Positions 3,640-33,924 of a stretch of DNA of 36,733 bases are shown one piece after another; the first letter of the stretch is position 1; every line of letters begins with the position of its first letter. The stretch is from an uncultured Gammaproteobacteria bacterium (lineage in GTDB: Bacteria > Pseudomonadota > Gammaproteobacteria > Arenicellales > JAANXG01). Where the stretch lies: the NCBI GenBank assembly GCA_947258975.1, contig CAMYKK010000035.1, positions 1 through 36,733 of the forward strand. The letters run 5' to 3'. Position numbers and translations under genes: made by a program. The notes below the pieces were generated by a model. It saw nothing but the letters and a program-made list of their open reading frames with translations. It did no database searches and was not told where the DNA came from.

Positions 3640-3782
3640 TCCGCGTATCTCACCCGTCTCCCGCGCGGGGACAAGCACGTCTTCGGGCACAACACCGGGA
3701 ACTCATCGGATCATTCATTCCAAACAATTTGCCAGCGCCTCTTTTTGCCGCCTTGGTTCAATATGCGGGTTAGCACCTTTTT
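3640..3782. other. Intergenic region between convergent genes with a repeat copy
   Basis: This 143-bp gap separates the DUF62 stop from the lpdA stop. It contains a short GC palindrome (CCCGCGCGGG near 3660), which could act in termination, and repeat copy A at its right end. No coding potential was recognised. Confidence 0.6.
3751..3777 (-). repeat. 3'-end repeat, copy A
   Basis: On the plus strand this reads CCTTGGTTCAATATGCGGG followed by TTAGCACC. Read in the sense of lpdA it is TAACCCGCATATTG, starting about 10 nt after the lpdA stop codon. It shares the core CAATATGCGGGYTA with copies B and E and the CCTTGGT flank with D. It is one of six copies in the window that sit at gene 3' ends in the same orientation. 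Confidence 0.7.
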
Positions 3783-12168: not shown

Positions 12169-12240
12169 CCTGGGAAAGTCCCGGTCTGTAACCTGCACCC
12201 AGTATACCCCACGATGGCGAAGGAATCGGGCGGCGGGGCG

Positions 12241-12262
12241 CCTTGCCGCAATATGCGGGCTA
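12241..12262 (-). repeat. 3'-end repeat, copy B, overlapping the pdxH stop codon
   Basis: On the plus strand it reads CCTTGCCGCAATATGCGGG then CTA. The CTA (12260-12262) is the complement of the pdxH TAG stop, so in the pdxH sense it reads TAGCCCGCATATTG. With its left flank (GGGGCG) it shares CAAGGCGCCCCGC, in sense reading, with copy C. Confidence 0.75.
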
Positions 12263-28906: not shown

Positions 28907-30133
28907 ATGCCCTTAATCAGGCCTTTTCGTGGCTTACGGCCTGCGGCTGAATCCGCGCAAAATATTATCGCACCGCCCTATGATGTATTGACGGCAAACG
29001 AGGCGCGTGCGTTGGTTGCGGATGCGCCGGACAATTTTCTCCACGTCTCGAAACCAGAAATCGATCTGCCCGCGGATGTCCCGGCCGAGGATCCCAGGGT
29101 CTACGCAAAAGGTGCGGAGAACTTTAAACGATTGATTCGCGACGGACTGCTGCGGCAGGACGCGCGGCCGTGTTTTTATCTCTACCGTTTGCGGCGCGCC
29201 GACCACGTGCAGACCGGGATCGTGGTCACCGTTTCGGTAGCGGACTACGAGGCCAATCACATTCGTAAGCACGAGTTGACTCGGCCCGACAAGGAAGACG
29301 ACCGGGTGCGTCATATGGAAGCCCTCAACGCCCAGACCGGTCCTGTGCTGCTGGTCTATCCGGATGATCGATGCGCACAGCAACTGATCGCGAAACAGAG
29401 TGAAACGGCTCCGGTATACGATGCATTGGAGCTCACTGACGTCGAACATACGCTGTGGGTCGTGGATGACGCCGAGACGATCTCCGCCGTGAGACAGGTC
29501 TTCGCAGCGCTGCCGGCCTTTTATATTGCCGACGGCCACCATCGCTCCGCGGCGGCGGCACGGGTCGCAGTACGCCGTGGCCGCGAGGACGACGCCGCGA
29601 ATCATTTTCTTGCGGTGTTGTTCCCGGCATCTCAGACCCAGATATTGGACTACAACCGCTTGATAAGGGACTTGAATGGTTTGTTCCCACAGACGTTTCT
29701 TGAACAGGTTGCACGGCGGTTTTCGGTCAGTGAGCAGGACCAGCCGGTGCGTCCCGCCGTAGCCGGGGAGTTTGGCATGTACCTGGCCGGGCGCTGGTAT
29801 CGCCTGCGTGCGGCTGACGAATGGCTGCACGCCGACGATCCGCTTCTGTGTTTGGATATCAGTATATTGAGCAACTACCTGATCCAACCTCTGCTCGGCA
29901 TCGAGGACGTACGGCGCGACCCACGCATCGAATTTGTTGGCGGTGTAAGGGGGCTCGGTGAACTCCAACGACGCGTCGATAGTGGCGAGATGGCGGTGGC
30001 GTTTTCAATTTACCCGACACCCTTATCGGCGCTCATCGCGGTTGCCGATGCCGGCGAGATCATGCCGCCGAAATCAACCTGGTTTGAACCCAAGCTGGCG
30101 GACGGGTTGGTGTCGCACATGCTCGGCACGTGA
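28907..30133 (+). CDS. DUF1015 family protein
   Basis: A 408-aa soluble protein of the DUF1015 family. The N-terminal MPLIRPFRGLRP and APPYDVLT are diagnostic, as are the KHELTRPDKEDDRVRHMEA stretch and FYIADGHHRSAAAARVA, whose His/Arg residues are strongly conserved in the family and suggest a phosphotransfer or nucleotide-handling site. ATG 28907 gives the exact family start; the open extension to 28868 is rejected. The biochemical role is not settled, and no partner genes are nearby. Repeat copy C follows its stop by about 40 nt. Confidence 0.9.
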   Translation: MPLIRPFRGLRPAAESAQNIIAPPYDVLTANEARALVADAPDNFLHVSKPEIDLPADVPAEDPRVYAKGAENFKRLIRDGLLRQDARPCFYLYRLRRADHVQTGIVVTVSVADYEANHIRKHELTRPDKEDDRVRHMEALNAQTGPVLLVYPDDRCAQQLIAKQSETAPVYDALELTDVEHTLWVVDDAETISAVRQVFAALPAFYIADGHHRSAAAARVAVRRGREDDAANHFLAVLFPASQTQILDYNRLIRDLNGLFPQTFLEQVARRFSVSEQDQPVRPAVAGEFGMYLAGRWYRLRAADEWLHADDPLLCLDISILSNYLIQPLLGIEDVRRDPRIEFVGGVRGLGELQRRVDSGEMAVAFSIYPTPLSALIAVADAGEIMPPKSTWFEPKLADGLVSHMLGT

Positions 30134-30174
30134 ACGCGCCACCGATCCATGGATCCATGAAGATTGGTCGCCTT

Positions 30175-30195
30175 AACCCGAATATGGCACCAAGG
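30175..30195 (+). repeat. 3'-end repeat, copy C
   Basis: In the sense of the upstream DUF1015 gene it reads AACCCGAATATGGCACC then AAGG, and continues into GCGCCCCGC, shared with copy B. It is 41 nt after the DUF1015 stop. Confidence 0.65.
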
Positions 30196-30214
30196 CGCCC
30201 CGCGTCCACTCTTT

Positions 30215-30257
30215 GAATATAGGGGGGTCGGAGTCCGTGACTCCGACCCCTATATTC
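30215..30257. repeat. Near-perfect long hairpin
   Basis: The arms 30215-30235 and 30239-30257 pair over 19 bp with a two-G bulge and a 3-nt CGT loop. It is flanked by repeat copies C and D, and is one of the most stable stem-loops in the window. Confidence 0.85.
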
Positions 30258-30310
30258 ACTCCAGCGCGGCGTCCAGTCGCCCGACCCTGCGACTGCGCGC
30301 AGCACGAGTC

Positions 30311-30351
30311 CCTGCGCCAGCTTCCGGGATCCTTGGTGCAATATCCGGGTT
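30311..30351 (-). repeat. 3'-end repeat, copy D (with extended flank)
   Basis: On the plus strand CCTTGGTGCAATATCCGGG (from 30331) is preceded by CCTGCGCCAGCTTCC (30311-30325), whose exact complement recurs in copy F. In the sense of the DUF3106-like remnant it follows that gene's stop by about 14 nt. Confidence 0.65.
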
Positions 30352-30365
30352 GACCCTGTCCTGAT

Positions 30366-30512
30366 CTATTTCGCGGGAAGGCAGTGGGTGGGAAGATAAC
30401 CGCGCTCCTGCTGAAACTGCTGGCACAGCGCTCGCTGGCGCTGCGGCGGGAGCCTCCCGAACGAGCGCCTTTGGCGTCGCAGTCGCTCCAGTTGCTCTTC
30501 ATCCATTTCCAT
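30366..30512 (-). pseudogene. C-terminal remnant resembling a DUF3106 protein
   Basis: From the ATG at 30512 the frame encodes 48 residues, MEMDEEQLERLRRQRRSFG then RLPPQRQRALCQQF and a short tail. Regularly spaced Glu/Arg with LPPQRQRA resembles the repeated LxPeqR pattern of DUF3106 proteins, which are normally much longer, exported and encoded beside an ECF sigma gene. The N-terminal part is missing. It abuts the sigma-factor remnant in another frame, as if an internal deletion fused the two. Confidence 0.5.
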
Positions 30513-33747: not shown

Positions 33748-33787
33748 GGCCTGCATATGGCACCAGTATCCGGGAAGCTGGCGCAGG
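33748..33787 (+). repeat. 3'-end repeat, copy F (diverged)
   Basis: In the sense of the DUF192 gene it reads GGCCTGCATATGGCACCAG, matching 15 of 21 core positions, then GGAAGCTGGCGCAGG (33773-33787), which is an exact complement of the flank of copy D. It begins 43 nt after the DUF192 stop. Confidence 0.55.
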
Positions 33788-33804
33788 AAAGGAGCGGCTG
33801 GATT

Positions 33805-33841
33805 CCCCGCTGTCCCCCTGCTGTGGGGGGACAAGGCGGGG
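33805..33841. terminator. Very stable hairpin between convergent genes
   Basis: CCCCGC-TGTCCCCC pairs with GGGGGACA-AG-GCGGGG across a 7-nt loop: 14 bp with a 2-nt bulge. A second small stem, GGGGGC/GCCCCC, overlaps its right edge (33838-33851). Located between DUF192 (+) and the glycosyltransferase (-), it may serve both directions. Confidence 0.55.
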
Positions 33842-33924
33842 GCAAGCCCCCTGCTGCGCGGGGACGAGCGCCGGACTGGAGAGGGTGATTTCTTTTTGCG
33901 CTTTTCAGCCCCCCTTTGTTGCTG

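What the first reader, a model, noticed from the sequence alone, without database searches (positions are those of the whole stretch)
30175..30351. 177-bp palindromic mini-element made from two inverted repeat copies
Ends matching 19/21 in inverted orientation bound a non-coding segment with a 19-bp-arm hairpin (30215-30257). The structure resembles a MITE or a RAYT-mobilised REP doublet. It also suggests that the 3'-end repeat may be the terminal sequence of a mobile family, with other copies being solo ends.
Basis: partly seen in the sequence, partly recalled or inferred. Interest (0 to 1): 0.55.

Follow-up and report, generated by a model that had tools for sequence, protein, structure and literature searches.

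The report
IS1380-type miniature transposon with nested hairpin
The 177-base palindrome is one worn copy of a family of short, gene-less jumping DNA pieces whose ends match those of a full-size bacterial jumping gene (IS1380 family), and a second hairpin repeat lies inside it; the kind is known, this family appears undescribed.

Summary
The element proper is 30177-30349 (173 bp), with inverted ends of about 20 bp flanked by TTAA/TTGA, and a separate hairpin at 30214-30258. It is a worn, internally shortened copy of a dispersed miniature transposon (MITE) family. The end motif occurs 117 times in this genome at up to 3 mismatches (reversed control 4). A full-length copy matched 11 of 13 genomes of the bacterial family and 0 of 47 others of the order. 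Many copies carry a 4-bp YTAR target duplication; one copy splits a znuA gene, and a sister species lacks the window copy but has another beside the same gene. The ends match IS1380-family insertion sequences: one in this genome has CTAG on both sides, two in the order have TTAG on both sides. Against this: no IS1380 gene was found in the assemblies of several copy-rich relatives. The hairpin is another repeat, with MITE sequence within 200 bp in 11 of 15 places (background 29 of 600); no RAYT could be tied to it. The window's 'solo ends' are complete or truncated copies. New family of a known kind; modest interest.

The parts
30177..30349 (+). MITE copy (173 bp), internally shortened; conserved module at the right
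   Evidence: two-ended detection; 46 local matches from the copy library
30173..30176 (.). left target flank TTAA
   Evidence: YTAR target duplication shown across the family
30350..30353 (.). right target flank TTGA (YTAR with one change)
30177..30196 (+). left terminal inverted repeat CCCGAATATGGCACCAAGGC
30330..30349 (+). right terminal inverted repeat
30197..30213 (+). stub of the left half (CCCCGCGTC.. type seen in full-length copies)
   Evidence: read by eye against the left halves listed
30214..30258 (.). nested REP-like hairpin (stem TGAATATAGGGG..TCGGAGTC, loop CGT)
   Evidence: core found exactly at 15 places in the own genome and 8 in four relatives; MITE sequence within 200 bp at 11 of the 15
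30259..30329 (+). conserved right subterminal module (CGACCCTGCGACTRCGCGCAG..CGCCAGC..CGGGATCC)
   Evidence: all 30 places that were given loci overlap this part; right 94 bp of 38 of 41 oriented copies fall in one cluster
3640..3769 (-). second complete copy, flanked by TTAG on both sides; its right end carries a left-type half
   Evidence: (L031); orientation read
12194..12259 (.). truncated copy whose end at 12259 is followed by CTAG
33750..33881 (-). truncated copy with its outer end at 33750 (flank CTGG, not YTAR)

Best explanation
The feature is a decayed, internally deleted copy of a MITE family that was moved in trans by IS1380-family DDE transposases. Such a transposase recognises the ~16-20 bp ends (CCCGNATATTGCACCA or CCCGNATTTCTCACCA), inserts the element at YTAR tetranucleotides and duplicates them. 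Shown: the dispersed family, its ends, the duplication, a disrupted gene, and autonomous IS1380 elements with the same kind of ends and duplication. Inferred: that these transposases did the moving, and that the window copy (TGCACC end class) was moved by the IS lineage which in this genome was seen only as a remnant. The inner hairpin is a second, independent REP-like repeat that came to lie in MITE copies, here together with loss of the middle of the element. No host function is needed to explain it; an effect on the mRNA 3' end of the upstream DUF1015 gene is possible but untested.
For: Copy number: 117 end motifs <=3 mismatches, control 4; pattern YTARCCYGNATNTNNCACC exact: 66 in the own genome, 137 in G002, 143 in G005, 177 in G008; reversed control 0 in all 60 genomes. 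Target duplication: of 50 two-ended rows, 24 have YTAR on both sides and 14 of these are identical (shuffled pairing 8.1, p 0.007); of the 12 of them with an asymmetric left YTAR, 6 equal the right one and 1 is its reverse complement; without the loci fetched by a pattern that ended in TTAG, 12 of 21 are identical (7.5, p 0.02). Gene disruption: the C203 copy (169 bp, CTAG/CTAG) splits a ZnuA gene, profile positions 1-172 (96 bits) and 177-263 (22 bits, under the cut-off of 29, E 1e-4); leaving out the element and one CTAG gives one 305-codon frame. Empty site: in G004 the DUF1015 spacer lacks the window copy and has its own 267-bp copy further upstream; with both left out, flanks align with gaps of 1, 1 and 2 bases. 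Autonomous partners, all NF033539 at 391-408 bits, cut-off 180: own C102, 1736 bp, CTAG both sides, identical 16-bp ends; G001 C24; G032, 1628 bp, and G040, 1784 bp, both TTAG on both sides; the right end of G040 is CCCGCATATCTCACCA, as in MITE L080. Blind check: 9 genomes outside the family have the end pattern; of the 9 loci fetched, 3 lie beside IS1380 similarity. End class is shared within a copy (25 TGCACC both, 8 CTCACC both, 2 mixed, 14 with an unassigned end, of 49), and five IS transposases fall in two lineages (65-78% identity within, 46-49% between) with TTGCAC/TTTCAC/ATTCAC or CTCACC ends.
Against: No PF13701 match was found in G002, G003, G005, G007 and G008 (5 of the 9 family genomes searched), though four of these are rich in MITE ends; draft assemblies may drop such repeats, but this was not tested. 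Of 15 PF13701 loci, 6 had an end-like sequence within 4 mismatches and 9 had none. The G001 IS has TTAG on one side and TAGC on the other, and the G006 one CTAG and CTTG, so no exact duplication. 6 of 9 end-motif loci outside the family had no IS1380 similarity in the stretch held, and the third positive one (G035) is weak (35% over 72 residues) with no second end. The window copy's flanks are TTAA/TTGA; 26 of 50 two-ended rows lack YTAR on one or both sides. MITE and IS share only the outer ~16 bp, and no movement was seen. In the own genome the TTGCAC-type IS was seen only as a remnant (residues 6-52 of the G001 transposase at 89%). In G004 the target itself is not conserved (TTTG for TTAA).
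Confidence: 0.82

Rival explanations
1. REP doublet/REPIN moved by a RAYT (Y1 HUH) transposase.
For: Compact palindrome with an inner hairpin; a Y1 transposase in a 225-codon frame in the own genome (C6) is flanked by GGGGTC(A/T)GACCCC palindromes that share GGGGTC with the hairpin.
Against: The element has long inverted ends shared with IS1380 elements and a 4-bp target duplication, whereas HUH transposition makes none (established knowledge, recalled). 0 of 30 fetched Y1 loci hold GGGGTCGGAGTC.
Confidence: 0.04
2. The element is a MITE, but moved by another DDE family that uses YTAR targets (for example IS701 or an IS5 group; the YTAR attribution is recalled).
For: A YTAR target duplication is not unique to one family (recalled); several copy-rich relatives show no IS1380 gene.
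Against: The one PF13546 (DDE_5) match in the own genome, C131, lies in a locus with no such end within 4 mismatches. Full IS1380 elements do carry these ends with the duplication. But around the ends only IS1380 was looked for; other DDE families were not searched.
Confidence: 0.1
3. The repeats are kept as host regulatory elements (bidirectional terminators or mRNA 3'-end stabilisers) and are no longer mobile.
For: Strong fold; the window copy begins 43 bp past the DUF1015 stop codon.
Against: Does not explain duplications, gene disruption and different insertion places in sister species. Not exclusive with a MITE origin. No Rfam family reached its gathering score; four weak hits, two of them eukaryotic microRNA families on the hairpin.
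Confidence: 0.04

Closest known systems
IS1380-family insertion sequences (NCBIfam NF033539, Pfam PF13701)
   Same: End sequence; YTAR target duplication as measured here on own C102, G032 and G040
   Different: The element has no gene and is 173 bp (32 of 50 two-ended rows of the family are 238-313 bp) against 1.6-1.8 kb. IS1247 of this family is tabulated with a 5-bp duplication (PMC3281130, passages read); the elements here have 4.
IS- or transposon-derived MITEs, e.g. Tn3-derived TIMEs (PMC4133298, passages read)
   Same: Short, gene-less, inverted ends shared with an autonomous element, target duplication
   Different: Other transposase family; two end classes; one conserved half with several unrelated other halves
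TMos / ISEcp1-type modules of the IS1380 family (PMC9330008, passages read)
   Same: One fixed end joined to variable DNA resembles the one conserved half with changing other half here
   Different: TMos carry the IS itself and adjacent captured DNA; one-ended capture is only an idea for this family
piggyBac elements of animals (PMC10813416 and PMC10140906, passages read; IS1380 used there as distantly related outgroup)
   Same: TTAA-like 4-bp target (rarely TTAG or CTAA) followed by CCC at the element end
   Different: Eukaryotic; ends otherwise not compared; no test of common mechanism made
REP/RAYT and REPIN repeats (PMC3116915, PMC3733652, PMC2817692, PMC3686654; search listing only)
   Same: The nested hairpin is a short dispersed palindrome
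   Different: No RAYT linked to this hairpin; the 173-bp unit has MITE anatomy

Membership tests
MITE (IS-related, non-autonomous) | Short, without a transposase gene | tested here: met
   173 bp, too short for one; no Pfam match in the overlapping antisense ORF tested, 30173-30502; the other, 30060-30341, not tested
MITE (IS-related, non-autonomous) | Terminal inverted repeats | tested here: met
   26 nt at 85%
MITE (IS-related, non-autonomous) | Target duplication | tested here: met
   family level: 14 of 24 YTAR/YTAR copies identical, 26 of 50 rows not YTAR on both sides, 12 of 21 in the less biased subset; the window copy itself has TTAA/TTGA, 1 mismatch
MITE (IS-related, non-autonomous) | Dispersed multicopy | tested here: met
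MITE (IS-related, non-autonomous) | Ends shared with an autonomous element | tested here: met
   IS1380 at own C102, G001, G032, G040; none found in 5 of 9 family genomes
MITE (IS-related, non-autonomous) | Filled and empty sites | tested here: met
   window site empty in G004, target itself diverged; znuA split in C203
MITE (IS-related, non-autonomous) | Movement by the partner transposase in trans | not testable with these tools
   needs a transposition assay
IS1380 family (as an IS) | Encodes an IS1380 transposase | tested here: not met
   no room for the gene in 173 bp; it would be a derivative, not a member
REP/REPIN moved by RAYT (whole element) | Associated with a RAYT gene flanked by the same repeat | tested here: not met
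   0 of 30 fetched Y1 loci carry GGGGTCGGAGTC; 30 of the 34 matches had loci
REP (inner hairpin only) | Short dispersed palindrome in many copies | tested here: met
   core found exactly at 15 places in the own genome
REP (inner hairpin only) | Moved by a RAYT | tested here: inconclusive
   own Y1 gene at C6 is flanked by a related but different palindrome

The most novel reading that the evidence does not exclude
A lineage-wide MITE system in which two IS1380 lineages, distant bacterial relatives of piggyBac that also insert at TTAA-like YTAR sites, each drive a MITE class with matching ends; new MITE types arise by keeping one strong end and capturing fresh DNA at the other (one-ended transposition), while a second mobile hairpin repeat homes into the MITE's own palindromic middle, so that two mobile repeats are nested as host and guest.
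Probability: 0.25. Interest if true: 0.55.

Novelty: new member of a known kind. Interest (0 to 1): 0.36.

Why it matters
It accounts for a large class of repeats in a family of uncultured Gammaproteobacteria and corrects the reading of them as REP doublets or solo ends. If the IS1380 link is confirmed, the family gives many marked insertion sites with which to measure the target rule (YTAR) of bacterial relatives of piggyBac. The nesting of hairpins in MITEs offers a testable case of one small repeat using another as its landing place.

Tried and rejected
RAYT origin of the whole element: rejected. IS701-type origin (PF13546), considered because of the YTAR target: one match in the own genome, in a locus with no such end within 4 mismatches. 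attC/integron site: considered from the TTAACCC..GGGTTAA ends and dropped on inspection (orientation opposite to attC; recalled, not run). Known RNA family: no Rfam hit at its gathering score; four weak hits. Spread on phages or plasmids: no match to the 173 bp at E 1e-5 in either collection. An ultrashort back-to-back end palindrome as a multicopy repeat: the one exact pattern tried was found once in the own genome and once in G025, so dropped. A pairwise alignment of the window copy with one full-length copy placed the left half poorly, so the position of the internal deletion rests on reading the sequences, not on that alignment. Literature: searches for IS1380 with MITE, YTAR, piggyBac/TTAA, CTAG, Acetobacter or target site showed no MITE family with these ends in their listings; passages were read in six papers; the library holds open-licence papers only.

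Full report
What is there. The stretch 30175-30351 has inverted ends of 26 nt at 85% and an inner hairpin at 30214-30258; 30171-30356 folds far better than shuffles (z -7.5, 0 of 200). The mobile unit is 30177-30349, 173 bp; TTAA (30173-30176) and TTGA (30350-30353) flank it. It begins 43 bp past the stop codon of a DUF1015 gene.

It is a family. A search of the own genome (5.49 Mb, 214 contigs) with the element gave 62 matches at E <= 1, a lower bound since 40 of 192 candidates were scored; the end motif TTGNNNCAATATGCGGGTTAG occurs 117 times at up to 3 mismatches, reversed control 4. Of 50 two-ended rows, 32 are 238-313 bp long. All 30 places that were given loci overlap the right ~95 bp of the element. 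Of 45 two-ended copies of 150 bp or more, 41 could be oriented; their right 94 bp form one single-linkage cluster of 38 plus three singles (320 of 820 pairs linked), while the left 110 bp form groups of 15, 13, 4 and 2 plus seven singles (98 of 820 pairs). So one half looks conserved and the other has several types; but most copies were fetched by similarity to the window copy or to one full-length copy and oriented by the conserved part, which favours this result. The group of four (window copy, two overlapping rows of L002, and L010) includes the inserted hairpin.

Distribution. A full-length copy matched 11 of 60 genomes (own included) at E <= 1e-4: 11 of the 13 genomes of the family, 0 of 47 others of the order. 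An exact 22-mer of the conserved module matched four stretches in three named assemblies of uncultured Gammaproteobacteria. The end pattern YTARCCYGNATNTNNCACC had 66 exact matches in the own genome and up to 177 in others of the family, reversed control 0 in all 60 genomes; it was found in 21 of 60, and 184 matches were seen in G025, an order-level relative without the internal sequence. No match in the phage or plasmid collections.

It moved. Of 50 two-ended rows (one copy counted twice through nesting), 24 carry YTAR on both sides and 14 of these are identical, against 8.1 by shuffled pairing (p 0.007). Among the 12 of them with an asymmetric left YTAR, 6 right sides are identical and 1 is the reverse complement, which points to target duplication and not to an extended inverted repeat; the other 26 of 50 rows lack YTAR on one or both sides and are read as decayed or mis-paired. 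Thirty of the loci had been fetched with a pattern ending in TTAG; without them 12 of 21 are identical (7.5 expected, p 0.02). A 169-bp copy in contig C203 with CTAG on both sides splits a zinc-uptake ZnuA gene: the two parts match profile positions 1-172 and 177-263, the second under the curated cut-off, and without the element and one CTAG the frame is open for 305 codons. At the window's own site, sister species G004 keeps the DUF1015 gene and the DNA after it, lacks the window copy, and has its own 267-bp copy further upstream; with both left out the flanks align with gaps of 1, 1 and 2 bases, although the target itself differs. In G001, G002 and G005 other DNA follows DUF1015, so they say little.

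What moved it. PF13701 (IS1380) was sought in 14 genomes: 3 of 9 family genomes searched have a match over the cut-off (own, G001, G006), G004 a weak one, and G002, G003, G005, G007 and G008 none, although four of these are rich in MITE ends. Draft assemblies often drop multicopy elements (inference), but this counts against the reading. Of the 15 loci fetched, 6 had an end-like sequence within 4 mismatches and 9 none. The own element at C102 is 1736 bp with CTAG on both sides and identical 16-bp ends CCTGGATTTCTCACCG. The G001 element has CCCGGATATTGCACGA at its left end and TTAG/TAGC flanks; the G006 one has CTAG and CTTG. The end pattern, searched without regard to genes, was found in 9 genomes outside the family; one locus was fetched from each, and 3 of the 9 lie beside IS1380 transposase similarity, 6 do not. 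Two of the three (G032, 1628 bp; G040, 1784 bp) have both ends and TTAG on both sides, and the right end of the G040 element is CCCGCATATCTCACCA, as at both ends of MITE L080 in G008; the third (G035) is weak and had no second end. The four transposases scanned (own C102, G001, G032, G040) match NF033539 at 391-408 bits, cut-off 180. MITE copies mostly have matched end classes: 25 TGCACC/TGCACC, 8 CTCACC/CTCACC, 2 mixed, 14 with at least one unassigned end, of 49. Five IS transposases fall into two lineages (71-78% and 65% within, 46-49% between) with TTGCAC/TTTCAC/ATTCAC or CTCACC ends (the G040 transposase was not picked up by that script, but is 56% identical to the C102 one, and its left end reads GTCACC). 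That each lineage serves its own MITE class is inference. The window copy is of the TGCACC class at its right end (GGCACC at its left); in the own genome that IS lineage was seen only as a remnant (C2), which fits an old, no longer mobile copy.

The inner hairpin. Its core, GGGGTCGGAGTC-GACTCCGACCCC with a short loop, occurs at 15 places in the own genome and 8 in four relatives, all within the family (exact matches only). At 11 of the 15, sequence matching 24 hairpin-free MITE copies from relatives lies within 200 bp (two of the 11, L127 and L130, only at E 0.001, and L120 at 8e-5), against 29 of 600 random places drawn from the window and seven other own-genome loci. Junctions with the MITE differ between copies (read), so several events are likely. 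A Y1 transposase search gave 34 matches in 11 of 14 genomes, 30 with loci; none of the 30 holds the exact motif, though the own Y1 gene at C6 is flanked by related GGGGTC(A/T)GACCCC palindromes. Whether the hairpin is a RAYT-type REP stays open.

Window neighbours. Besides the element, three other stretches of the window match the copy library: 3640-3769 (complete by its ends, TTAG on both sides; library matches cover 3692-3769), 12194-12259 and 33750-33881 (truncated). A loose scan for ends alone (<=4 mismatches) gave 12 hits in the window against 2 in the reversed window, so single loose ends prove little.

Judgement. A MITE family with IS1380-type ends: a known kind, apparently an undescribed family (literature, open-licence library only). 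The mosaic halves recall the one-ended capture described for ISPme1 and ISEcp1 (PMC9330008, passages), and the TTAA-CCC start recalls piggyBac (PMC10813416, passages); both are leads, not tests.

Noticed in passing
window 30214-30258; own genome, 15 places: REP-like hairpin GGGGTCGGAGTC..GACTCCGACCCC is strongly associated with MITE sequence (11 of 15 against 29 of 600 background), with differing junctions.
   Followed up: partly
window 33750-33881; L048, L013, L130, L131: A second hairpin-like stretch with CTTGTCCCCGC..GGGGGACA also sits in or near MITE copies, close to where the first hairpin sits (read by eye).
   Followed up: no
L044 (own genome C37, near 59303): A ~24-bp tandem array (GTGCTTGTGCTGCGCGGAGTTGCA units) ends near a MITE right end; the unit looks like the reverse complement of the MITE's conserved CTGCGACTACGCGCAGCACAAG module, as if that module had been amplified.
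   Followed up: no
L133 (G004, 3' end of the DUF1015 gene): The G004 MITE lies at the very end of the DUF1015 reading frame and seems to replace its stop, adding a short C-terminal tail read from the MITE (read).
   Followed up: no
G025 (order-level relative): 184 exact matches to the IS1380-type end pattern although the internal MITE sequence was not found there: perhaps another MITE or IS family in high copy.
   Followed up: no
L200 (G015): Short element with CTAACCTGCATATTGCACCA at one end, a 1-mismatch inverted partner about 120 bp on and TTAG beyond: a likely separate MITE type outside the family.
   Followed up: no
L069 (own genome C6, 138810-139109): RAYT-like Y1 transposase flanked by several GGGGTC(A/T)GACCCC palindromes.
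   Followed up: partly
L118 (own genome C2, near 145850-145990): Remnant of the other IS1380 lineage (residues 6-52 at 89% identity to the G001 transposase) near one of the hairpins.
   Followed up: partly
L219 (own genome C46, 24866-24910): A 45-bp palindrome made of two CTCACC-type ends almost back to back: perhaps a minimal MITE of this type, seen once.
   Followed up: no
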